From Pseudovibrio axinellae (lineage in GTDB: Bacteria > Pseudomonadota > Alphaproteobacteria > Rhizobiales > Stappiaceae), in assembly GCF_900110875.1 (NCBI RefSeq), contig NZ_FOFM01000001.1, positions 62,001 through 126,000 of the forward strand: a stretch of DNA of 64,000 bases, read 5' to 3'. The translations under genes were made by a program, and so were the position numbers. A model generated the notes under the pieces. It made no database searches. It saw nothing but the letters and a program-made list of their open reading frames with translations, and was not told where the DNA came from. This document shows positions 14,347-53,851 of the stretch, piece by piece (positions within the stretch are counted from its first letter, which is position 1; each line of letters begins with the position of its first letter).

Positions 14347-14874
14347 ATGGCTATTCTATTTGTGTTTTCAGGGTTGCCGGGCGTTGGAAAAACAACACTG
14401 GCAAGAGCACTTGCACCACGGTTGCAAGCTGTACATCTGCGTGTTGATTCAGTTGAGGCTGCACTTAAGACATCTGTGCTTGCAATTTCACCTGCGGAGG
14501 ATGCCGGGTACGTCGCTGCCGCCGCAGTTGCAATGGACAACCTGCGACTTGGAAATAACGTGATTGCAGATGCGGTAAACCCGATTGAGATCACCCGCAA
14601 CATTTGGCTGGAAGCTGCGCTGGGCGCGAAAGTGAAGGCCATGCATATTGAAGTGGTTTGTCCAAACGAGTTTGAACACCAAAGGCGTGTCGAGAGCAGG
14701 CATAACGACATTTCAGCCATGTGCCCGCCAACCTGGAACGATGTGAAGCGTCGCAAATTTGAACCATGGAAGAAGCACCGCCTTGTGGTCGATACCTTTC
14801 AAAAGCCCATACAAGACAATGTGGAGGACATCTTAGAGAGCTTTAGCCAGCTGGTTCGGTACGGCTCTTATTAG
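14347..14874 (+). CDS. P-loop AAA-type kinase-like protein
   Basis: This 175-residue protein has a Walker A motif at its N-terminus (GLPGVGKTTLARAL, about residues 9-22). It resembles the small P-loop kinases that phosphorylate small molecules, such as gluconate- or shikimate-kinase-like and zeta-toxin-like folds. A hydrophobic strand ending VIADAVNP (about 76-83) could supply the catalytic Asp, and a lid-like RRVESRHND segment follows. No specific substrate is indicated. It stands alone 65 bases after the AraC gene. The 256 bases downstream, up to the response regulator, contain nothing recognisable. Confidence 0.75.
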   Translation: MAILFVFSGLPGVGKTTLARALAPRLQAVHLRVDSVEAALKTSVLAISPAEDAGYVAAAAVAMDNLRLGNNVIADAVNPIEITRNIWLEAALGAKVKAMHIEVVCPNEFEHQRRVESRHNDISAMCPPTWNDVKRRKFEPWKKHRLVVDTFQKPIQDNVEDILESFSQLVRYGSY

Positions 14875-38602: not shown

Positions 38603-39136
38603 ATGGCAAAACAAAGTAGTCAAAAATTTATCGCGAGGAATAGAGCCCCTCGAGTCCAGATCGAATATGACGTGGAACTTTATGGTGCGGAAAAAACCAT
38701 TCAGTTGCCATTTGTTGCTGGTGTAATGGCGGACCTCTCCGGCAAGCCAGAAGACCCACTTCCTCCAGTTGGTGACCGTAAAGCCCTTGAGATTGACGTC
38801 GACAATTTTGATGAACGTATGAAGTCGATGAAACCACGTGTCGCTTTTCGTGTTCCGAATACGCTTACTGGAGAAGGTAATCTCAGTGTGGACCTAACAT
38901 TTGAAAGCATGGACGACTTCTCACCTGCTGCCGTGGCACGCAAGGTCGATGCGCTTCGTACATTGCTTGAAGCACGCACTCAGCTTTCAAACCTAATGAC
39001 CTATATGGACGGCAAATCTGGCGCAGAAGAATTAATCGGCAAAGTTTTGAATGATCCGGCGCTTTTACAAACACTCGCCGCCGCTCCGAAGGAAGCCGAC
39101 CTCGCTGCTGAAGAGAAGGACGAGAATAATGGCTGA
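38603..39136 (+). CDS. tssB: T6SS contractile sheath small subunit TssB (VipA)
   Basis: TssB pairs with TssC to build the contractile sheath around the Hcp tube. The 177-residue product opens with SSQKFIARNRAPRVQIEYDV, almost invariant in the family, and has the LPFVAGVMADLSGKP and EIDVDNFDERM segments and the FESMDDFSPAAVARKV helix. It overlaps tssC by eight bases. Confidence 0.97.
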   Translation: MAKQSSQKFIARNRAPRVQIEYDVELYGAEKTIQLPFVAGVMADLSGKPEDPLPPVGDRKALEIDVDNFDERMKSMKPRVAFRVPNTLTGEGNLSVDLTFESMDDFSPAAVARKVDALRTLLEARTQLSNLMTYMDGKSGAEELIGKVLNDPALLQTLAAAPKEADLAAEEKDENNG

Positions 39137-40634
39137 AGCTGAAAAGCAACCAGATGTCGAAGCCCAAGAGGTGCAGGCCGAAGCTATTGACCCCAATGCT
39201 TTTGACTCCCTTCTTAAACAAGAGTTCAAACCAAAATCTGACAGTGCTAAAGAGGCTGTTGAAGGAGCGGTCCAAGCTCTGGCTGAGCAGGCCCTACTTA
39301 ATACGACGTTGATTTCAGATGACACTTTGAAGTCCATTGAGTCCATAGTGGCTGAGATTGACCGCAAACTCTCAGAGCAAATACAACTCATACTCCATCA
39401 CAATGACTTTCAAAGCCTTGAGGGATCCTGGAGAGGTCTGCATTACCTGATCAACAACACCGAGACGGACGAGATGTTGAAGATCCGTGTGATGAACATT
39501 TCCAAAAAGGACCTTAGCAAGACCTTAAAGAAATATAAGGGTACCGCTTGGGATCAGAGTCCCGTCTTCAAGATAATTTATGAGGAAGAGTATGGGCAAT
39601 TTGGCGGCGAGCCATACGGCGTTCTGATTGGCGACTACTATTTCGACCATACTCCGCCAGACGTAGCTCTCTTAAATGAGATGGCAGAGATTGCTGCAGC
39701 AGCCCATGCCCCATTTATCGCGGGAGCCAGCCCCACACTCTTCCAAATGGAATCTTGGCAAGAACTTTCGAACCCTAGAGATCTAACCAAGATCTTCCAA
39801 ACACCCGAATATGCAGCCTGGCGCTCGTTGCGTGATGCTGAGGATTCTCGTTACATCGGGCTCGCGATGCCTCGGTTCCTATCACGTTTGCCCTATGGAG
39901 CGATGACTGAGCCTGTCGAAGAATTTGACTTTGAAGAGGACACATCTGGCGCAAACTCGTCCAAATATGTCTGGTCAAACTCCGCGTTCGCGATGGCTAC
40001 CAATATCACTCGTTCGTTCAAAATGTACGGTTGGTGTTCACGAATCCGCGGTGTTGAATCAGGTGGCGCAGTCGAAGGTCTACCAGCACATACCTTCCCA
40101 ACAGATGATGGCGGTGTGGATATGAAGTGTCCTACCGAGATCGCGATTACAGACCGCCGCGAAGCAGAACTTGCTAAGAATGGTATGATGCCTCTGCTAC
40201 ACCGCAAGAATTCTGACCTTGCTGCGTTCATAGGCGCTCAGTCACTACAAAAGCCTGCCGAATATACGGACCCAGATGCCACAGCAAACGCAAATCTTGC
40301 AGCGCGGCTACCGTACCTTTTCGCGAGTTGCCGCTTTGCTCATTACCTAAAGTGCATTGTACGAGACAAAATCGGCTCCTTCAAAGAGCGGCAGGACCTG
40401 CAGAACTGGTTGCAAGATTGGATCATGCGCTACGTAGATGGCGACCCTGCCGGGTCCAGTGAACTCACAAAGGCAGAGAGACCTTTGGCCTCTGCTGAAG
40501 TCGTGGTTGAAGCTGACGATTCCAACCCAGGTTACTACAGTGCAAAGTTCTTCCTGCGCCCACATTATCAACTGGAAGGACTGACGGTTTCCTTGCGGTT
40601 GGTATCAAAACTCCCGTCAGCCAAAGGCGGCTAG
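39129..40634 (+). CDS. tssC: T6SS contractile sheath large subunit TssC (VipB)
   Basis: TssC forms the sheath with TssB. The 501-residue protein has the acidic N-terminal helix region, the LEGSWRGLHYLINNTETDEM core segment (about 98-117), GVLIGDYYFDHTPPDVALL (about 173) and the C-terminal Gp18-like region ending YHYQLEGLTVSLRLVSKLP-type sequence. I chose the ATG at 39129, preceding MAEAEKQ, over an in-frame upstream start that would lie inside tssB. A second, fused TssB-TssC paralog lies at 48849. Confidence 0.96.
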   Translation: MAEAEKQPDVEAQEVQAEAIDPNAFDSLLKQEFKPKSDSAKEAVEGAVQALAEQALLNTTLISDDTLKSIESIVAEIDRKLSEQIQLILHHNDFQSLEGSWRGLHYLINNTETDEMLKIRVMNISKKDLSKTLKKYKGTAWDQSPVFKIIYEEEYGQFGGEPYGVLIGDYYFDHTPPDVALLNEMAEIAAAAHAPFIAGASPTLFQMESWQELSNPRDLTKIFQTPEYAAWRSLRDAEDSRYIGLAMPRFLSRLPYGAMTEPVEEFDFEEDTSGANSSKYVWSNSAFAMATNITRSFKMYGWCSRIRGVESGGAVEGLPAHTFPTDDGGVDMKCPTEIAITDRREAELAKNGMMPLLHRKNSDLAAFIGAQSLQKPAEYTDPDATANANLAARLPYLFASCRFAHYLKCIVRDKIGSFKERQDLQNWLQDWIMRYVDGDPAGSSELTKAERPLASAEVVVEADDSNPGYYSAKFFLRPHYQLEGLTVSLRLVSKLPSAKGG

Positions 40635-44608: not shown

Positions 44609-45786
44609 CCGGCTCCTCGTTCACACCTCCTTCTTCTCTTAATAGCGCCAGAGATGCAAAGCGACAAACTGATGCGCGAGCCAGGTGGCAACCTCCTGCG
44701 CATAAGGAGGCCCCGCTTAGCGCTCGCTGGAAACGACGCTTTCAATTAGCGGAAAAAGATTACCTGAGTTATGAGTTTTTGCCGCTCGTGCGACTTATAG
44801 AGTGCGCCCACCCCAATAAGCCTCGGATTGGAACATCGCGGCGTTGCAAGGACGATCCTGTTCGGTTTTCGCACGAACCGCATTTACAGTTTGAAGCGAC
44901 CACCATTACTGCATTCAAACAAAGTATCGGAGCCAAACCCAACCGTCTGACAAGTCGCTTTCTAGGTTTGTTTGGTCCTAACGGTCCTATGCCTTTACAC
45001 CTGACTGGATATGCGTTCAAACGCGAACACCAACACCGTGACACCACGATGCGCGCGTTTGCAGACGTCTTTCATCATCGCGTTCTTAGCTTATTCTACC
45101 GCGCCGCAGTCACAGCAGAACCCGCTTTCAGTTTTGACCGCCCCGACGACGACAGGTTCTCCGTTTACACAGGTTCTATAGCTGGATTTGGGCCCACAGA
45201 GTTTCGGCATCGAGACAAATTTCCAGACGTGGTGAAATATCATTTTACAGCTCGCCTTGCCTTACAGACTCGCAACTGCGAGGGACTCCTTGCAATCTTG
45301 AGTAGCTTCTTCAATCTACCTGTCGATCTTGAAGAGTTCATTGGTGAATGGCTTTATCTTCCAAAAAACCAAGTCACCACATTAAACGGCTTCCGCAATG
45401 CAGGCGTCCTTGGGGTTGGAGCAGCCCTAGGTGCTCGTGTCTGGTCAAGCGATACAAAGTTCCGTGTGGTGTTTGGCCCTCTTTGCCTGCACGACTATGA
45501 AAGACTACTCCCCGACGGGGTTTCCATGCCTCGACTACTTTCTGCAGTACGGGCCTATTGCGGCGACGAGCTTGAGTGGGATGTAACACTTGTTCTTAAA
45601 CGCGAACAAACACCAAAAACCCACCTTGGCCAGTATGGAAAGCTCGGTTGGACCACCTGGTTATCTCCACAAAAACACGGCGGGCCAGTTCGAGACCTTA
45701 ATCTACGACCACGCGAGATTGTTCGAAAATCAAAAATGACAAATCAATCAAATGATCGTGCGGCGGCCGCCCAGGAGTCCATATGA
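44605..45786 (+). CDS. tssG: T6SS baseplate protein TssG (ImpH/VasB)
   Basis: TssG completes the baseplate wedge with TssF. The 393-residue product has the family features PLVRLIECAHPNKPRIG (about 57-73), RFLGLFGPNGPMPLHLTGY (about 118-136) and FADVFHHRVLSLFYRA (about 152). Its N-terminal 45 residues are Ser/Arg/Pro-rich and atypical. ATG 44605 overlaps the tssF stop; a GTG 27 bases upstream is less likely. It overlaps clpV by four bases. Confidence 0.94.
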   Translation: MTGSSFTPPSSLNSARDAKRQTDARARWQPPAHKEAPLSARWKRRFQLAEKDYLSYEFLPLVRLIECAHPNKPRIGTSRRCKDDPVRFSHEPHLQFEATTITAFKQSIGAKPNRLTSRFLGLFGPNGPMPLHLTGYAFKREHQHRDTTMRAFADVFHHRVLSLFYRAAVTAEPAFSFDRPDDDRFSVYTGSIAGFGPTEFRHRDKFPDVVKYHFTARLALQTRNCEGLLAILSSFFNLPVDLEEFIGEWLYLPKNQVTTLNGFRNAGVLGVGAALGARVWSSDTKFRVVFGPLCLHDYERLLPDGVSMPRLLSAVRAYCGDELEWDVTLVLKREQTPKTHLGQYGKLGWTTWLSPQKHGGPVRDLNLRPREIVRKSKMTNQSNDRAAAAQESI

Positions 45787-48449
45787 GTGATATCAAACGA
45801 GCATCCCTTTTCGGCAAACTCAACCCAACCTGTTATCAGGCCATCGACAGTGCGACTACCTTTTGTAAGATGCGCGGCAACCCATATGTTGAATTGGAAC
45901 ATTGGTTCCAGCAACTTTTAAGCGCACAAGATAGCGACTTGCATCGCATCATTCGAGAGGCTGGTATAGACGAAGCAAGGCTGGCGCGTGACCTCACCAA
46001 AGCGCTTGATAAACTCCCAAGAGGTGCAAGCTCAGTTAGCGACCTTTCTCAGCACGTTGAGGAAGCCGTGGAACGTGGCTGGGTCTACTCAACACTGATG
46101 TTCGCCGATAACGCAATCAGAAGCGGTTACCTCCTCATTGGGATCCTCAAGACTCCTGGGCTTCGTAACACGCTCTTTGGTATCTCCCGGTTGTTTGAAA
46201 ATATACCGATCGATGACATTGCAACACGCTACAAACAAGTCACCGAGGGGTCACCTGAAAACAGTGATGCCAAGGATGGCAGCCATATTGAAGCCGGAGA
46301 AGAGACTTCCGCTCCAGCTTTAAACTCCGGCGATGACTTTCTTAAAGCCTACACAACTGATGTTACCGCAAAAGCAAGGGCTGCACAGCTGGACCCTGTG
46401 ATAGGGCGCGAAGACGAAATTCGACAAATCATAGATACATTAATGCGACGCCGGCAGAACAACCCAATATTGACTGGAGAAGCGGGCGTTGGAAAAACCG
46501 CAGTGGTTGAGGGGCTTGCAATTCGCATTGCGCAAGGTGACGTTCCTCCTTCCATCAAGGACGTGCGTATTCTGCTTTTAGACGTCGGCCTCTTGCAGGC
46601 AGGAGCAGGCGTTAAGGGTGAATTTGAGGACCGCTTAAGCAAAATTCTGGATGCCGTTCGTTCATCAGTGCAACCCATAATTTTATTCATCGATGAAGCA
46701 CACACGCTAATTGGTGCAGGAGGGGCAGCTGGCACTGGAGATGCTGCAAACCTACTAAAACCAGCGCTTGCACGCGGTGAGTTGCGCACCATTGCTGCGA
46801 CCACATGGTCGGAGTACAAAAAGCATATCGAGAAGGACCCAGCTTTAGCGCGCCGGTTTCAAAACATTGTTGTCGATGAGCCTGATCCAGAAAAGGCCGT
46901 TGCTATTATGCGCGGTGTCGCAACGATGCTTGAAAAGCACCACCAAGTGCAGATTCTAGATGAAGCTCTTGAAGCTGCTGTACACCTTTCAATGCGCTTT
47001 ATTCCAGCTCGCCAACTTCCTGATAAAGCAATCAGCCTGATCGATACAGCATGTGCACGCGTTGCCTTGTCTCAACACGCCACCCCTGCTGCTGTTGATG
47101 ACTGCCGCAAACGTTTAGCTATGAATGAGACCGAACGGGATATTTTGGAACGAGAAACAAGGTCAGGGTTTGACGTTGGAGACAAGCTCTCAGATGTAGA
47201 AACAAAACACACAGAACTTGAAGAAGAGCTCAAAGCCCTGGAGGCTGAATGGCTCACTGAGCAAAAGCTTGTTAGTGATATCTTGAAGCTGCGAGAGAGC
47301 TACCGCCAAACAAGCGGCAATGCAGATATTGATGCCCAGCCAATTCGCGAAGAACTACACCAAAAACTTGAGGAGCTGACGGAGCTGCAGGGCGAACATC
47401 CGCTTATCATGCCGCAAGTTGATGGACAGGCGGTCGCAACCATTGTTTCTGATTGGACCGGCATTCCGACCGGGCGTATGGTCAGTAATGAAATCAAGAC
47501 CATCCTTAATCTAAGCGAAATCTTACAAAAGCGGATCATAGGCCAGGATCATGCAATGCAGATGATCGCCCGCCGTGTAAGAACCTCTCGTGCAAACCTT
47601 GATAACCCAAGCCGCCCTATTGGCGTATTTCTGCTGGTTGGGCCAAGTGGAGTTGGGAAAACCGAAACGGCTCTTGGGCTTGCTGAGACCCTTTATGGCG
47701 GGGAGCAAAACCTGATCACTATCAATATGAGTGAGTTCCAAGAGGCACATACGGTTTCAACACTTAAAGGTTCACCTCCAGGGTATGTGGGCTATGGCGA
47801 GGGCGGTGTTCTCACTGAAGCTGTGCGCCGCCGACCATATAGTATTGTCTTGTTAGACGAGGTTGAGAAAGCGCACTCCGATGTTCATGAGTTATTCTTT
47901 CAAGTGTTCGACAAAGGAATAATGGAGGATGGTGAGGGCCGGAAAATCAACTTCAAAAATACGCTCATTCTTCTTACAGCCAATGTAGGTAGCGATCTAA
48001 TCTTGAATATGTGCTCAGACGAAGACCTGATCCCTAAACCGGATGGAATTGCAAAAGCACTACGCCAACCACTCTTAGAAACATTTCCAGCAGCACTGTT
48101 GGGTCGCCTGGTTACAGTCCCATATTACCCACTACGCTCTAAGGTCATTCACAGGATCATTAACCTACAGCTTTGTCGCATAAGTGATCGTATGCTCAAG
48201 AACCACAATGTCACGCTGAAATGGGACGACACGGTCATAAGCTTAATTGAGAGTAGGTGCGCCGAGATTGAGAGCGGCGGACGCATGATTGATGCAATCC
48301 TGACCAACACTCTTCTGCCAGATATCAGCACCGAATTCCTAAAAAACATGAGTGAAGGCAAGAAAATTACGGCACTCACTGTTTCTGCAAAGGGTGATGT
48401 TTTTGACTATAAATACACAAAATCACGCAACGCGAAAAGTAAACCATAA
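45783..48449 (+). CDS. clpV: T6SS sheath-disassembly ATPase ClpV (TssH)
   Basis: ClpV is the AAA+ unfoldase that recycles contracted sheath. The 888-residue protein has an N-terminal domain that recognises sheath, Walker A1 GEAGVGKTAVVEG (about 233), LFIDEAHTLIGAGG, a coiled middle segment (about 440-520), Walker A2 GPSGVGKTETALG (about 620) and GSPPGYVGYGEGG. The second ATPase and short C-terminal domain are complete. It closes the tssA-clpV block; the next gene starts over 100 bases later. Confidence 0.96.
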   Translation: MSDIKRASLFGKLNPTCYQAIDSATTFCKMRGNPYVELEHWFQQLLSAQDSDLHRIIREAGIDEARLARDLTKALDKLPRGASSVSDLSQHVEEAVERGWVYSTLMFADNAIRSGYLLIGILKTPGLRNTLFGISRLFENIPIDDIATRYKQVTEGSPENSDAKDGSHIEAGEETSAPALNSGDDFLKAYTTDVTAKARAAQLDPVIGREDEIRQIIDTLMRRRQNNPILTGEAGVGKTAVVEGLAIRIAQGDVPPSIKDVRILLLDVGLLQAGAGVKGEFEDRLSKILDAVRSSVQPIILFIDEAHTLIGAGGAAGTGDAANLLKPALARGELRTIAATTWSEYKKHIEKDPALARRFQNIVVDEPDPEKAVAIMRGVATMLEKHHQVQILDEALEAAVHLSMRFIPARQLPDKAISLIDTACARVALSQHATPAAVDDCRKRLAMNETERDILERETRSGFDVGDKLSDVETKHTELEEELKALEAEWLTEQKLVSDILKLRESYRQTSGNADIDAQPIREELHQKLEELTELQGEHPLIMPQVDGQAVATIVSDWTGIPTGRMVSNEIKTILNLSEILQKRIIGQDHAMQMIARRVRTSRANLDNPSRPIGVFLLVGPSGVGKTETALGLAETLYGGEQNLITINMSEFQEAHTVSTLKGSPPGYVGYGEGGVLTEAVRRRPYSIVLLDEVEKAHSDVHELFFQVFDKGIMEDGEGRKINFKNTLILLTANVGSDLILNMCSDEDLIPKPDGIAKALRQPLLETFPAALLGRLVTVPYYPLRSKVIHRIINLQLCRISDRMLKNHNVTLKWDDTVISLIESRCAEIESGGRMIDAILTNTLLPDISTEFLKNMSEGKKITALTVSAKGDVFDYKYTKSRNAKSKP

Positions 48450-48555: not shown

Positions 48556-48822
48556 ATGCAGAGCCTCAAGCAATCAAAGACGGAACCACCAGCGCGCCTC
48601 TTCTCGCAGCGTCAATTTTCATTGCAACTTCAGGGCTTGAACAACGATCAGTCGGCAACCATGCCGTTGCTGAACAACAACAATCTCACAAAGCAAGCCC
48701 GTGAAGGTTATTTACATGGCCCACATGCTCCTCACCTTGGCCACGTAGACAGAACACGGTCAACTCATAGACCGCCTAAGCGTGATGTTGCTGTCTACTG
48801 TCCCAAATCTAAAGGGCTTTGA
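48556..48822 (+). CDS. Small hypothetical protein ahead of the fused sheath paralog
   Basis: This 88-residue frame has a good ribosome binding site (AAGGAG at 48543-48548, seven bases before the ATG). The product is polar, rich in Gln, Asn, Ser and His/Pro (LLNNNNLTKQAREG, GPHAPHLGHVD), with no recognised domain, signal peptide or membrane segment. It ends 26 bases before the next gene, consistent with co-transcription. It may be a small T6SS-linked protein or a leader frame. Nothing was recognised between clpV and this frame. Confidence 0.4.
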   Translation: MQSLKQSKTEPPARLFSQRQFSLQLQGLNNDQSATMPLLNNNNLTKQAREGYLHGPHAPHLGHVDRTRSTHRPPKRDVAVYCPKSKGL

Positions 48823-48848
48823 AGAACAAACAGGTAAGAGCAAGAGAG

Positions 48849-50798
48849 ATGGTGATGGGTGCCTCAAGTAACGACGACGCTTTTGGTGAAGGGTTTGGTA
48901 GCACTGTTGATGGCGACGGATCGCAGTCCGCTAAAGGCCCTGCAACACATAAGTATGAACCAAATTTTGGTGATATTTCGTGCCAAGCTCCAAAACTAAA
49001 CATCACCACTCAAAGCCCTTTCCACTTGGTCGTGATTGGGGATTTCTCAGGCAGAGCGAACCGTATGGCCCTACATACTGCTAATGAACTTGCAGGGCTC
49101 AAAGGCCACAATGTTGACGTGGATACTGCAGAGGACCTTCCCGCTAGGCTCAAAATAAAACTTGATCTGGACTTAGCCGGGGATGGTCAAGTTGTTCATT
49201 TTGAGCCTTCCTCAATTGAGTCCTTTCACCCAGATGAGATCATCGAGGAGTTTGAGATCTTCGACGAGCTGAAAGCACTGCGTTCAGCATTGAAGAATGC
49301 AGGTACGTTCAGCAGCGCTGTCGCTACAATAGATGAATGGCAGGAAGAGCAAAGGGATCAACCGCTTAAACGCCGATCTGCTCGCGGTGCAATTATACCT
49401 GCTGATAAGAAACTGAGTGACTTTTCTTCCCTCATTGAACGCCCAATTGAAGAGCGCGAAGAAGCAGATGACCTGACTGAGCTGATTGGAAAAATCGTAT
49501 CGCCCTATATCACACCAGCCGATGATCCAGAGCTAGAAGATTATCTAGAGATCATTGAAACCGTGATGAGCACAACTCTTCGCAGAGTCTTACAGGATGT
49601 TGATTTCCAGTCACTGGAAAGCGTTTGGCGCGTGGTGGACATGCTCTCACGGCGCATAGAGACGTCTAGTTTACTAAAGATCACAATCTACGACATATCG
49701 GCGGAAGACTTTGCACATGATCTGAGCGCAACCAATACTCTAGAGGATACAGGTTTGTATCGTCTATTTGTCGAGAATGCTCTTCAAGAGGACGGTGTTG
49801 GCACCCCAAGTGCAATTGTCGGCCTTTATACATTCGATATGACGCCGCCGCATGCTGAACTCTTAGGTCGCATGGCTAAAATCTGCGCGCATGCTCACGC
49901 ACCATTCCTAACCTCACTTGATCGCTCAAATGCAACCAGGAAATTTGACGCCCTTCCAAAGGTAACAAAGGAAGCTTGGCAGAGCCTGCGTGCGCTGGAG
50001 GAGAGTAACTACATCGGCCTCAGTTTGCCGCGCTTTATGCTTCGCATGCCGTATGGTGCAAAGACGGACCCAATTGATGCTTTCAATTTCGAAGAATTTG
50101 ACGAAAAAATTGGGTTAAAAGCCATGCTTTGGGGAAATCCTGCCGCACTGGTTGGACTTGTCCTTGCCAAAGACTACGAGACCAGTGGTAGCGCCATGCA
50201 ACCTGGCTCCATCCTTACCGTCGATGAGATACCATTTCATTACGTGCATGATCAGTACGGAGATCAGGTTGCCTTACCCTGCACAGATCGCATAATCAGT
50301 CACCGCAGCATCGAGCCCCTTATGCAGCAAAACTTGATGCCAGTTGTCTCAATGAAAGGGCAACCGGAAGTTCGTATTGCCTCACTGCACGGCCTTGCGG
50401 GACAAGTTATTTCTGGCCGCTGGTGCGACCAGATCACGATCAAAAAGGCTAATGCAAAAAGCTCCAGTGCTTCTGGCGGCCTTGTGACTGATGGCGCAGC
50501 CGCTTTAGCTCAAGCTCCCAAAGGTGCTGTCGTTGTAGAAACGATAACTGATCCGAAGAAGACCCCTGAAACAATTTTTCGCATTGAAGTCGAAGCGCCA
50601 AAACCAGATATCACGGAACACGAGCCACAAACACATGAAGCATGTGAAGAATCCTCCCCTGAAACAGCTTTATCTGAGCCGGATAACTCTGAACTAGACG
50701 ACCTACTCGCTGACCTTTCTGCTGATGACGAAACACCAAGCAGTGGTGAGGGCGATGGCATGGACCCAGAACTCGAAGCACTTCTGGCAGATCTGTAA
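48849..50798 (+). CDS. Fused TssB-TssC-like sheath paralog with acidic tail
   Basis: This 649-residue protein joins both sheath subunits in one chain. Residues about 50-170 resemble TssB (PFHLVVIGDFSGR, then VDVDTAEDLPARLKIKL and FEPSSIESFHPDEI, parallel to TssB's VDNFDERM and FESMDDFSP segments). Residues about 220-530 resemble TssC (VDFQSLESVWRVVDMLSRRI, ALEESNYIGLSLPRFMLRMPYGA). The last 70 residues are Glu/Asp/Ser/Pro-rich and contain ELDDLLADL and ELEALLADL. I chose ATG 48849, with AAGAG eight bases upstream. The separate tssB and tssC are intact, so this is an extra sheath-like protein, perhaps at a baseplate or cap position. Confidence 0.85.
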   Translation: MVMGASSNDDAFGEGFGSTVDGDGSQSAKGPATHKYEPNFGDISCQAPKLNITTQSPFHLVVIGDFSGRANRMALHTANELAGLKGHNVDVDTAEDLPARLKIKLDLDLAGDGQVVHFEPSSIESFHPDEIIEEFEIFDELKALRSALKNAGTFSSAVATIDEWQEEQRDQPLKRRSARGAIIPADKKLSDFSSLIERPIEEREEADDLTELIGKIVSPYITPADDPELEDYLEIIETVMSTTLRRVLQDVDFQSLESVWRVVDMLSRRIETSSLLKITIYDISAEDFAHDLSATNTLEDTGLYRLFVENALQEDGVGTPSAIVGLYTFDMTPPHAELLGRMAKICAHAHAPFLTSLDRSNATRKFDALPKVTKEAWQSLRALEESNYIGLSLPRFMLRMPYGAKTDPIDAFNFEEFDEKIGLKAMLWGNPAALVGLVLAKDYETSGSAMQPGSILTVDEIPFHYVHDQYGDQVALPCTDRIISHRSIEPLMQQNLMPVVSMKGQPEVRIASLHGLAGQVISGRWCDQITIKKANAKSSSASGGLVTDGAAALAQAPKGAVVVETITDPKKTPETIFRIEVEAPKPDITEHEPQTHEACEESSPETALSEPDNSELDDLLADLSADDETPSSGEGDGMDPELEALLADL

Positions 50799-50819: not shown

Positions 50820-51101
50820 ATGGCAGAACTCATCGAAATTGATCGTGTTCCTGAAATTTTCGTCATGGAATACGGCGGGAATTACTATCTGGTCCGTGGT
50901 GCAGCATATCTCGATCAAATTCTGTTTGGCAAAGAGGCACTTGAAATCCCGATCCTTATTCAATCAGTCAACACTTGGGAGGAAGTTCTCTTGAACTGGG
51001 AAAATACGGGGGGATCTATGCCCTGGATTCTTAATCCAGGGATCGTGGAGCGAATGGAACGAGATAACTGCAAACTCACCACAACCAGTTTCAACGCCTA
51101 A
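50820..51101 (+). CDS. Small hypothetical T6SS-linked protein
   Basis: This 93-residue acidic protein has no recognised domain (MAELIEIDRVPEIFVMEYGG then aromatic-rich NYYLVRGAAYLDQILFG). It lies 21 bases after the fused sheath paralog and 39 bases before vgrG, on the same strand, so it belongs to that transcript. Strand-rich content and lack of signal peptide fit a small cytosolic adaptor or chaperone for the spike, but this is inferred from position only. Confidence 0.65.
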   Translation: MAELIEIDRVPEIFVMEYGGNYYLVRGAAYLDQILFGKEALEIPILIQSVNTWEEVLLNWENTGGSMPWILNPGIVERMERDNCKLTTTSFNA

Positions 51102-51140: not shown

Positions 51141-53249
51141 ATGTGTGCGAACAAAGTAACTGAGAACCGACTGTTCACGATCAATTTCGACGGCGGAGAC
51201 GACAGTTTCCACCTTTGGAAGCTTAAAATGACAAGTGAAATTAGTGAATTATTCGAGATGACCGTGGACTGCAGGTCCTTTGAACACGACCTAAGCCTAG
51301 ATAAGATGCTTGGCCAATCTTTGACGGTTGAAATCAAGAAAGTATCAGGGACGAGCCTGAGCTCTGATCAGTATCTAAACGGGTTTGTCACTAAAGCGAT
51401 CTACACTGGTCAGGATCAAGGTTACTCGACCTATCGGCTCATAGTACGTCCTTGGCCCTGGTTTTTAACCCTCTCAAGCAATTGCCGGATTTTTCAGGAA
51501 AAAACGACGCCCGACATCTTAAAGGAGGTCTTTCAAGAGGCGGGGTTTACTGACTTCAAGAACAAGCTCAGTGACAGTTATGAGGCTCGTCCTTATTGCG
51601 CTCAATTCCAAGAAACCGATTTCAACTTTGTTTGCCGCCTCATGGAACAAGAAGGCATCTATTACTATTTCGAGTATGAAGATGGTCAGCACTCAATGGT
51701 ATTGGCTGACTCATATAGCGCCCATGAAAACATCAAGGGTGATTCAAGTTTGCCCTTCTATTCACAAGAGGATCACTTTCGACGTGGTTTAGATCATTTC
51801 TGGATCTGGCGCCACAACGAGGAAATCCAAACTGACGAAGTCGAAATCAACGACTACGATTTTACCAAGCCCACAAGCGACCTGAAGGCCAATGCCAGCG
51901 AAAAGAAGTCTCACCAACTTTCTGGGCGCACGCGATATCTCTATCCAGGTGTGTATGAGGAGGTCAGCGTTGGGGAGAAGCGCGCCAAAATAAAAGTTGA
52001 AGAGGCCAGCGCAGCTTATGCGAAGGTTTTTGCATGCGGCAATGTTCGCGGGTTGCGCCCGGGATACCTCTTTAAGCTTAGCGAATTTCCAGACGATCCC
52101 AGGCAGGAAAAAGAGTACCTCATCACCAAAGCTAGCTGCGAGGTAACAATTGAAGTAGGTCGTGAAGAGCAACAAGAATTTTATGATGCGATCTCATACG
52201 AAATAGAAGCAATCGACTCAAAGATCCAATACCGCAAAGCGTCCACAACCCCATGGCCAAACATGAACGGCTTACAGTCAGCGATTGTGACGGGAGCAGA
52301 TGGTGAGGAGATTTGGACCGACGAGTACGGGCGCATTAAGGTGCAATTTCATTGGGATCGGGACGGGCAAAAAGACGACAAATCTTCGTGCTGGGTGCGC
52401 GTTGCGCAGTTGTGGGCAGGCAAAGGCTGGGGCGGTTTGCATGTCCCTCGGGTTGGACAGGAAGTCCTTGTGGACTTTCTTGATGGTAACCCAGACCGCC
52501 CTATCGTGGTTGGCAGTGTCTATAATGGCGAGCAAACGGTTCCATACGAGCTGCCTGGAGAGGCAACAAAATCAACATTCAAGAGCGAAACGTCCAAGGA
52601 AGGCGGCGGCAATAACGAGTTCTTATTTGAAGACAAGAAAGACGAAGAACTTGTGCAGCTCACTGCTGAAAGAGATTACGAACGCACTGTTAAAAATAAT
52701 GAGACGGTCAAGGTTGGCTTTGACAAGCAGGAGGATGGTGATCAGACAATTGAGGTCTACAACAACCGTAGCCTTACAGTTGATCAAGGTGATGAAACAT
52801 ACACCATCAAGACAGGCGGGCGCACAACGACCGTTGAGAAGGACGACGCTCTTTCGATCAAATCCGGGAACCATTCGATCACAGTTGAAAGCGGAGATCA
52901 GAGTATCTCCATGCAACAAGGTGCTCAAAGCGTTGAGGCGATGAAGGACATCGGCCTAACATCTCAAAGCGGTGATGTGAAGGTCGATGCCTCTGCTGGA
53001 TCTGTCAAAATTTCTGGAACTCAAGCAATTGAGCTGTCCTGCGGTGGAAGCTCTATCAAGATGGACCCAATGTCGATCACCCTAACAGCGGGTCCAAGTT
53101 CACTTAAACTTGAAGCGGCTCAGGCGGAACTGAAGGGACTAATGGTGACTGTAAAGGGGGACGTTCAAGCCACTGTGGACGGAACTTTGACGACACTCAA
53201 GGGTGCCGGCATCACGACAGTGCAAGGCGCACTTGTAAAGATCAACTGA
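51141..53249 (+). CDS. vgrG: T6SS spike protein VgrG (TssI)
   Basis: VgrG trimers form the puncturing spike at the Hcp tube tip. The 702-residue protein has the gp27-like N-terminal domain (FTINFDGGDDSFHLWKL, EQEGIYYYFEYEDG), the gp5 OB-fold with EEIWTDEYGRIKVQFHWDRDG and SSCWVRVAQLWAGKGWGG, VLVDFLDGNPDRPIVVGSVYN, and a beta-helix tail to the end. There is no extra enzymatic domain, so effectors are probably non-covalently loaded. A DUF6931-like gene and PAAR follow. Confidence 0.96.
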   Translation: MCANKVTENRLFTINFDGGDDSFHLWKLKMTSEISELFEMTVDCRSFEHDLSLDKMLGQSLTVEIKKVSGTSLSSDQYLNGFVTKAIYTGQDQGYSTYRLIVRPWPWFLTLSSNCRIFQEKTTPDILKEVFQEAGFTDFKNKLSDSYEARPYCAQFQETDFNFVCRLMEQEGIYYYFEYEDGQHSMVLADSYSAHENIKGDSSLPFYSQEDHFRRGLDHFWIWRHNEEIQTDEVEINDYDFTKPTSDLKANASEKKSHQLSGRTRYLYPGVYEEVSVGEKRAKIKVEEASAAYAKVFACGNVRGLRPGYLFKLSEFPDDPRQEKEYLITKASCEVTIEVGREEQQEFYDAISYEIEAIDSKIQYRKASTTPWPNMNGLQSAIVTGADGEEIWTDEYGRIKVQFHWDRDGQKDDKSSCWVRVAQLWAGKGWGGLHVPRVGQEVLVDFLDGNPDRPIVVGSVYNGEQTVPYELPGEATKSTFKSETSKEGGGNNEFLFEDKKDEELVQLTAERDYERTVKNNETVKVGFDKQEDGDQTIEVYNNRSLTVDQGDETYTIKTGGRTTTVEKDDALSIKSGNHSITVESGDQSISMQQGAQSVEAMKDIGLTSQSGDVKVDASAGSVKISGTQAIELSCGGSSIKMDPMSITLTAGPSSLKLEAAQAELKGLMVTVKGDVQATVDGTLTTLKGAGITTVQGALVKIN

Positions 53250-53257
53250 GGTATAAC

Positions 53258-53851
53258 ATGGAAAAAGTACCTACAAATAACACCCTTCTACTTACGCCTT
53301 TCAAATCACTCAACGAACAACGTCCTCTAGAGCTTGGCGATGATGCGAAGTTGTTAATAGATGACGGGAACGCAGCTATTGAAGTTATTGATATGCTCGC
53401 CAATGAGAGTCTCATATCGGATGCCATCAAGGTTCTTGCTCATGCGCTGAGTAAGCCACGTGCGGTCTGGTGGGCCAGCCAGGTCACCCGTGCGTCTTTT
53501 CCAGAAAGTACCTCTCCTTCCCAACAGGATGAGACTGCTTTGAAAACTGCGGAGGACTGGGTTCGAAAGCAAGACGAGGACCTTCGCGTCACCGCAATGA
53601 AAGTTGCAGATGACGGCCAGTATAAGAGTGCTGCCAGCCTTGCTGCTGCGGCTGCCGGCTGGAGCGGCGGAAGCATGGGTTCTCCAGAGTTTGATCCAGT
53701 ACCTCCCCCAGAAAACCTGACTAGTATTGCCGTGGGGTCATCTATAGCTTTGTCGGTGTATGACAGCAACGTGGAGGACCCAAAAGAGTTCTTAGCCAAA
53801 GCTTTTAAATTAGGCCGAGCACTCGCTGATAATGAAATTGAGGCCCTATGA
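53258..53851 (+). CDS. Hypothetical protein between VgrG and PAAR (DUF6931-like)
   Basis: This 197-residue cytosolic protein resembles the DUF6931 family as I recall it, proteins coded next to VgrG/PAAR; the match is from memory. The N-terminus is helical with KPRAVWWASQVTR (about 67-79). A second half has a Glu/Lys helix (TAEDWVRKQDEDLRVTAMKVAD), a Gly/Ser/Ala segment (SLAAAAAGWSGGSMG) and a C-terminal helix. ATG 53258 has GAGG ten bases upstream, overlapping the vgrG stop. Its stop overlaps the PAAR start (ATGA). Likely roles are adaptor or chaperone for spike loading. Confidence 0.7.
   Translation: MEKVPTNNTLLLTPFKSLNEQRPLELGDDAKLLIDDGNAAIEVIDMLANESLISDAIKVLAHALSKPRAVWWASQVTRASFPESTSPSQQDETALKTAEDWVRKQDEDLRVTAMKVADDGQYKSAASLAAAAAGWSGGSMGSPEFDPVPPPENLTSIAVGSSIALSVYDSNVEDPKEFLAKAFKLGRALADNEIEAL

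What the first reader, a model, noticed from the sequence alone, without database searches (positions are those of the whole stretch)
48849..50798. Fused TssB-TssC sheath paralog beside an intact sheath pair
The reading frame joins a TssB-like segment to a TssC-like segment, while separate tssB and tssC exist ten kilobases upstream. A permanently fused paralog could be a specialised sheath ring, a baseplate initiator or a cap, or a second sheath for a subset of spikes. It is coded directly before the small 50820 gene and vgrG, which ties it to the spike rather than the tube.
Basis: partly seen in the sequence, partly recalled or inferred. Interest (0 to 1): 0.65.

Follow-up and report, generated by a model that had tools for sequence, protein, structure and literature searches.

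The report
Armless fused sheath-protein mimic (T6SS)
A bacterial molecular spear gun carries, beside its normal two-part spring sheath, a one-piece copy of the sheath building block that has lost the arms needed to link up, so it is probably a helper of the sheath rather than a second sheath; a longer version was named TssCL in 2022, but nobody has reported testing what it does.

Summary
The 649-residue protein at 48849-50798 joins a TssB-like part (residues 55-150, Pfam VipA, above the curated cut-off) to a TssC-like part (234-512, VipB), and an intact tssB/tssC pair lies 10 kb upstream. The fusion is not new: a longer relative, TssCL, was described in roseobacters in 2022 (PMC9515649), with function untested. 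The window gene, from a Pseudovibrio relative, is a short form without TssCL's extra N-terminal TssB.

Added here: the family is one clade that also occurs in Burkholderiales, a Myxococcota-affiliated MAG and other unnamed lineages. In every member examined, the gp25-like C-terminal TssC domain and the N-terminal TssB arm, which together make the 'handshake' that links sheath subunits, are missing. The predicted fold matches a single-chain phage/pyocin sheath protomer without those arms. The TssC N-terminal ClpV-docking helix appears to be kept, and alpha- and betaproteobacterial members end in a conserved MDxELxALLxxL motif.

It is therefore very unlikely to be a second sheath. The best reading is a non-polymerising sheath accessory, perhaps acting on ClpV-driven sheath turnover (inferred). 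The link to the spike holds only in Alphaproteobacteria and one MAG.

The parts
48849..50798 (+). Fused TssB-like/TssC-like gene, 649 aa; short form of the TssCL clade (frame open from TTG 48819)
49011..49298 (+). TssB-like part (TssB'), residues 55-150; lacks the canonical TssB N-terminal arm
   Evidence: Pfam VipA 28.9 bits, profile positions 25-122 of 155; hhalign to canonical TssB starts at its residue 34; PDB profile hits are TssB chains
49398..49448 (+). Residues 184-200 (KKLSDFSSLIERP): counterpart of the TssC N-terminal, ClpV-docking helix
   Evidence: position before the VipB part; profile alignment through PDB 5urw TssC N-terminus; helix type matches that of the same genome's TssC; function inferred
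49548..50384 (+). TssC-like part (TssC'), residues 234-512; VipB without the VipB_2 gp25-like domain
   Evidence: Pfam VipB 154.8 bits, no VipB_2; 0 of 23 relatives have VipB_2; fold match Z 20-28 to TssC chains
50688..50795 (+). C-terminal tail motifs ELDDLLADL (residues 615-623) and MDPELEALLADL (638-649), predicted helices
   Evidence: end motif in 76 of 84 relatives by a strict pattern, plus 4 with one change; helices 614-624 and 640-648 in the model
38603..39136 (+). Canonical tssB (sheath small subunit), separate gene
39051..40634 (+). Canonical tssC (sheath large subunit) with VipB and VipB_2; its real start probably lies after the end of tssB
45783..48449 (+). tssH/clpV, sheath-recycling ATPase: proposed partner
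   Evidence: AAA+/ClpB-type domains in a T6SS locus; partnership inferred
50820..51101 (+). Small gene between the fused gene and vgrG; no Pfam family; found in only about a dozen related loci
51141..53249 (+). vgrG (tssI), spike; constant neighbour in alphaproteobacterial loci only

Best explanation
The gene encodes a short form of the TssCL clade: one chain in which a TssB-like and a TssC-like part fold together into the middle and outer layers of a T6SS sheath protomer. It has lost the inner layer, namely the TssB N-terminal arm and the TssC gp25-like domain with its C-terminal donor strand, which builds the tube by handshake [shown by sequence and predicted fold]. It therefore cannot polymerise as a normal sheath subunit and works as an accessory of the ordinary TssB/TssC sheath encoded beside it [inferred]. 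[quoted passage not shown] MDxELxALLxxL tail; in many roseobacters it is also chained, through an acidic linker that often repeats this motif, to an intact sheath-type TssB [shown by sequence]. Most likely mechanism: it sits on or near the sheath and modulates its turnover by offering extra docking helices to the ClpV ATPase [inferred; I put this ClpV step alone at about 0.35]. The confidence below is for the identity plus 'non-polymerising accessory of the sheath'.
For: VipA and VipB in 23 of 23 relatives, VipB_2 in none, while canonical TssC and ImpD have VipB_2. TssB' starts at canonical residue 34; the handshake is built of exactly the missing parts (PMC5807055). The AF2 core is confident; single-chain PVC/AFP/R2 pyocin sheaths align model ~55-531 to chain ~20-294 of ~383, without N-arm and C-terminal part. 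One clade, 100/100. Canonical TssC present in 16 of 16 fused-bearing genomes. In the genus it occurs in the 7 genomes that carry this system's TssC. Low dN (0.12 in the core) with saturated synonymous sites. Internal helix type matches that of the genome's TssC: LLDxI-like in L116, G472, G257, DFxxL-like in alpha and beta (profile alignment). C-terminal motif in 80 of 84, repeated in many roseobacter linkers above shuffles. The N-terminal TssB of long forms derives from the lineage's own TssB, and TssB' is a separate old clade.
Against: No functional data anywhere: the 2022 paper left it untested. The TssC-type helix also packs in the outer sheath layer, so its survival may be structural. LDxLL-type motifs are common amphipathic patterns. 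Tail-less members exist (L116, G472, G257, G690). The window's own N-terminus lacks the LDALL motif that other Pseudovibrio have. The constant place before vgrG in Alphaproteobacteria hints at another role.
Confidence: 0.6

Rival explanations
1. Sheath end-piece: the armless protomer docks on the last ring of the sheath (cap or brake) or on the first ring at the baseplate (initiator) through its middle and outer layers, and stops or starts strand exchange because it cannot donate arms. The tail binds TssA, TssK or another end component.
For: Loss of precisely the linking parts with the rest of the protomer fold kept; constant presence beside a normal sheath; native TssB added in long forms could anchor it.
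Against: Without either arm it has no known way to join the lattice; stacking contacts were not tested. No match to a cap or terminator fold was sought beyond Foldseek's own hits. A linker of up to 1,201 residues is odd for a ring part.
Confidence: 0.2
2. Spike or baseplate assembly factor: it helps load VgrG/PAAR, as its place before vgrG suggests.
For: Directly before vgrG in 68 of 68 alphaproteobacterial loci and one Myxococcota-affiliated MAG.
Against: Not next to vgrG in 13 of 13 Burkholderiales loci, and outside the cluster in two genomes. The small gene at 50820 is missing in most loci. The protein is made of sheath parts only.
Confidence: 0.1
3. A second, specialised contractile sheath made of the fused protein.
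For: TssB and TssC parts in one chain, as in phage sheaths.
Against: The handshake domain and arm are absent in the members examined; a canonical TssC is always present.
Confidence: 0.03
4. Equivalent of ImpD/TssC40, the second TssC that is required for Hcp secretion in Agrobacterium.
For: Both are divergent TssC-like paralogues in alphaproteobacterial systems (PMC3702570).
Against: ImpD-type proteins have VipB_2 and no VipA, branch within the TssC side of the tree, and G257 has TssC, an ImpD-like gene and the fused gene in one locus.
Confidence: 0.03

Closest known systems
TssCL of roseobacters (PMC9515649, Front Microbiol 2022)
   Same: Same clade: a VipA-like and a VipB-like part in one chain, no second TssC domain reported, encoded in a group-3 T6SS cluster that keeps tssB and tssC.
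   Different: TssCL was defined with two VipA domains and about 1,684 residues; the window protein has one VipA part, 649 residues and no long linker. The core of the ANG-M7 protein is about 39% identical to it (L089). The paper found TssCL only in Alphaproteobacteria; the clade reaches further.
TssC/VipB and TssB/VipA, the ordinary sheath pair
   Same: Homologous middle and outer layers.
   Different: Fused; TssB arm and TssC gp25-like domain missing; below the NCBIfam equivalog cut-offs for both (154 of 271.5 bits and 21 of 97 bits).
ImpD/TssC40 of Agrobacterium and relatives (PMC3702570)
   Same: A second TssC-like gene in alphaproteobacterial T6SS.
   Different: ImpD-type proteins keep VipB_2, have no TssB part and lie elsewhere in the tree.
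Single-chain sheath proteins of R2 pyocin, AFP and PVC
   Same: The model aligns over ~55-531 with Z about 14-16.
   [quoted passage not shown] this one does not.

Membership tests
TssCL (PMC9515649) | VipA-like and VipB-like parts in one chain | tested here: met
   23 of 23 relatives
TssCL (PMC9515649) | two VipA domains, the first about 86% identical to TssB | tested here: not met
   one VipA part only in the window protein; long forms such as L034 have two
TssCL (PMC9515649) | encoded in a T6SS cluster that also has separate tssB and tssC | tested here: met
   16 of 16 genomes with TssC
TssCL (PMC9515649) | common descent with roseobacter TssCL | tested here: met
   one clade with 100/100 support
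TssC/VipB sheath large subunit | VipB plus VipB_2 (gp25-like) domains | tested here: not met
   VipB only
TssC/VipB sheath large subunit | passes the NCBIfam equivalog TIGR03355 cut-off | tested here: not met
   154.4 bits against 271.5
TssB/VipA sheath small subunit | passes the NCBIfam equivalog TIGR03358 cut-off | tested here: not met
   21.4 bits against 97.25, though Pfam VipA is above its cut-off
ImpD/TssC40 | TssC-like with VipB_2 and without a TssB part | tested here: not met
ClpV substrate or adaptor (works like) | binding of a docking helix to the ClpV N-domain | not testable with these tools
   only sequence resemblance and matching of helix type; no complex prediction available

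The most novel reading that the evidence does not exclude
A widespread, previously unrecognised class of sheath regulator: a sheath protomer stripped of its linking arms and turned into a soluble or tethered adaptor that controls sheath disassembly (or ends polymerisation) through repeated short helices; in roseobacters it is re-attached to the sheath by an added native TssB and a flexible acidic chain of up to about 1,200 residues.
Probability: 0.35. Interest if true: 0.75.

Novelty: new variant of a known kind. Interest (0 to 1): 0.48.

Why it matters
The sheath is the engine of the T6SS, and how its length, stability and recycling are set is still open. A sheath subunit that evolution has stripped of its polymerising parts, kept under selection in several lineages and, in many roseobacters, re-linked to a sheath-type TssB, gives a natural handle on that question. 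It also corrects the view that TssCL is only a roseobacter or alphaproteobacterial fusion and makes it unlikely that it simply builds a sheath.

Tried and rejected
Second sheath: rejected on domain content. ImpD/TssC40 equivalence: rejected by tree and domains. Assembly or annotation artefact: rejected, because the fusion recurs in about 80 loci. Spike gene by position: weakened by the Burkholderiales and orphan loci. dN/dS for the fused gene: synonymous sites saturated, only dN is usable. Pfam and NCBIfam scans of the small 50820 and 48532 frames: no family. The VIA-align list shows no cap or terminator protein as such, but it looks only at Foldseek's own hits and lists mostly sheaths, so this says little. 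The second structure job was not used. No complex prediction was possible with these tools.

Full report
WHAT IS THERE. The + strand frame 48849-50798 (open from 48819) encodes 649 residues. Residues 55-150 match Pfam T6SS_VipA (28.9 bits, cut-off 24) and residues 234-512 match VipB (154.8 bits). A profile of the N-terminal part from 15 relatives retrieves TssB/VipA chains from the PDB as its only significant hits (best E 1.5e-6) and aligns with canonical TssB by hhalign at 97.5%. T6SS genes surround it: tssA, tssB, tssC, hcp, tagJ, tssE, tssF, tssG and tssH upstream; a small gene, vgrG, a DUF6931 gene, PAAR, FHA, tssK, tssL and tssM downstream (tssF, tssK and tssM named from their annotated relatives through the matches). 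The closest public relatives are Pseudovibrio. The genome has three VipB genes: two ordinary TssCs, one of them on another contig, and this one.

WHAT IS MISSING. Canonical TssC has a second Pfam domain, VipB_2 (gp25-like); the window's own TssC has it, and so do four ImpD-type second TssCs. None of 23 diverse fused proteins has it, while all 23 match both VipA and VipB. The TssB part also begins late: the hhalign match starts at residue 34 of canonical TssB, leaving out the conserved RNRAPRVQIEYDVE arm. The cryo-EM study of the P. aeruginosa sheath states that the tube is held by a handshake sheet made of TssC strands beta-11 and beta-12, the C-terminal strand of a neighbouring TssC and the N-terminal strand of a TssB (PMC5807055). 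The fused protein has thus lost both halves of that layer and kept the middle and outer layers. That VipB_2 corresponds to the TssC half of the handshake is my reading of the domain order, not a coordinate-level mapping.

FOLD. AlphaFold2 with 23 sequences gives a confident core (most ten-residue blocks 71-96 pLDDT from residue 40 to 530, with a poor stretch at about 174-202), a low-confidence tail, and helices at 614-624 and 640-648. Foldseek's best hits are the T6SS sheath large subunits. The second look by VIA-align gives Z 20-28 for TssC chains. For single-chain sheaths such as PVC, AFP and R2 pyocin it aligns model residues ~55-531 to chain residues about 20-294 of 383, Z about 15-16. So the TssB' and TssC' parts fold together as one protomer, without the first ~20 residues and the last ~90 that form the links in those proteins.

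FAMILY. One scan of genome contigs gave 80 loci, mostly Rhodobacterales but also Burkholderiales (Aquabacterium, Roseateles, Rubrivivax, Aquariibacter) and one 'Deltaproteobacteria' MAG that the tree tool lists under Myxococcota (L116); Eleftheria terrae has it on a plasmid. In a tree of the VipB part the 26 fused proteins form one side of a branch with 100/100 support against 33 TssC and 4 ImpD; long branches are present, so the deep order is unsure. Samples suggest rarity: 2 besides the window among 88 genomes with a TssC-like match of 398 in the phylum, and 1 besides the window among 70 of 385 in the class. In the genus, 7 of 16 genomes have it (one split by a frameshift), and these are the ones with the TssC of this system. 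All 16 fused-bearing genomes checked also have canonical TssC.

TWO FORMS. The window protein is a short form. In 46 loci the same frame starts with a TssB domain (45 at more than 200 bits and one cut by the contig end), is 862-1936 residues long and has an acidic linker of 83-1201 residues before the fused core. In Leisingera caerulea this N-terminal TssB is 83% identical to the locus's own TssB, against 27% for the TssB' part. A TssB tree puts the N-terminal domains beside the canonical TssB of the same lineages, while TssB' is a separate, long-branched clade with 100/100 support. The short form is therefore probably the older state, and a native sheath-type TssB was added later, possibly twice; short forms nested among long ones also point to losses. 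I read this as a hint that the protein works at the sheath; that is inference.

SHORT MOTIFS. The chain ends in MDxELxALLxxL in 76 of 84 sequences by a strict pattern, and in four more with one substitution; a second LDxLLAxF/L motif lies before it. The spacer between them is not conserved. Many roseobacter linkers repeat the motif (up to 18 times, against 0.0-0.3 expected from shuffles; a few have none). [quoted passage not shown] In L116 it reads SLLDDVLAQT (its TssC: SLLDQIIDQG), in G472 SFLDSIMQETQ (TssC: GLLSQIMTETR), in G257 SILDTMLAADR (TssC: GLLEQAIAATK). In alpha- and betaproteobacteria it reads LSDFxxLI or LDDFARL, where TssC has DFaaLLxKEFRPK. A profile alignment to the TssC of PDB 5urw runs through this helix. 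[quoted passage not shown]). Binding by the fused protein is not shown, and this helix also packs in the outer sheath layer.

NEIGHBOURS. In 68 of 68 alphaproteobacterial loci and in L116 the next recognised T6SS gene is vgrG, with the small 50820 gene between them in only about a dozen. None of 13 Burkholderiales loci shows this; there the gene often follows tssK or tssM, with a TagF-like frame (my reading of its sequence) between in several. In G257 it stands beside an FHA gene; in G472 and G690 it is outside the cluster. Proximity to vgrG is thus a lineage trait, not a rule. The locus list is biased towards Rhodobacterales.

KNOWN OR NEW. The long form was described in 2022 as TssCL, with two VipA and one VipB domain, found only in Alphaproteobacteria, function untested (PMC9515649). 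No other paper in the held library used the name in this sense. New here, as far as these tools show: the short form, the spread beyond Alphaproteobacteria, the loss of both handshake halves, the retained TssC-type helix, the conserved C-terminal motif and its repeats in the linker.

MECHANISM. Shown by sequence and predicted fold: a conserved, armless, single-chain sheath-protomer mimic that accompanies a normal sheath in every genome checked. Inferred: it cannot polymerise and acts as a sheath accessory. Further inferred, at about 0.35: it offers docking helices to ClpV and so tunes sheath turnover. An end-piece role (cap, brake or initiator) is the main rival; a second sheath and an ImpD equivalent are disfavoured.

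Noticed in passing
L034:11842-16791 (Leisingera caerulea NZ_CP081075.1): RefSeq's CDS starts at 14821 (656 aa), but the frame is open from 11842 (1649 aa) and begins with a TssB domain; the 3 kb before the annotated start have no listed gene.
   Followed up: partly
L138:4760-7865 and L139:1349-2782 (G257): One T6SS locus holds three sheath paralogues: TssC, an ImpD-like TssC and the fused gene.
   Followed up: partly
L140:8854-10416 (G472) and L184 (G690): Fused genes without a T6SS neighbour; in G472 the T6SS cluster with tssB and tssC lies on another contig.
   Followed up: partly
L040:9914-11913 (Pseudovibrio denitrificans JCM 12308): The fused gene is split into two overlapping frames (393 and 287 aa), as in G548: a frameshift or an assembly error.
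   Followed up: no
window 53258-53851: A DUF6931 protein between vgrG and the PAAR gene, present in nearly all alphaproteobacterial loci with the fused gene; function unknown and a possible partner.
   Followed up: no
window 48819-48940: Other Pseudovibrio fused proteins start with MSDSDKDDDLDALLNDII; the window protein has MVMGASSNDDAFGEGF instead, with no sign of the motif in the other forward frames.
   Followed up: partly
G000:C39:36969-37868: The genome has another TssC, of the LLDQIM type, on a different contig; it has no fused partner among the genome's three VipB matches.
   Followed up: no
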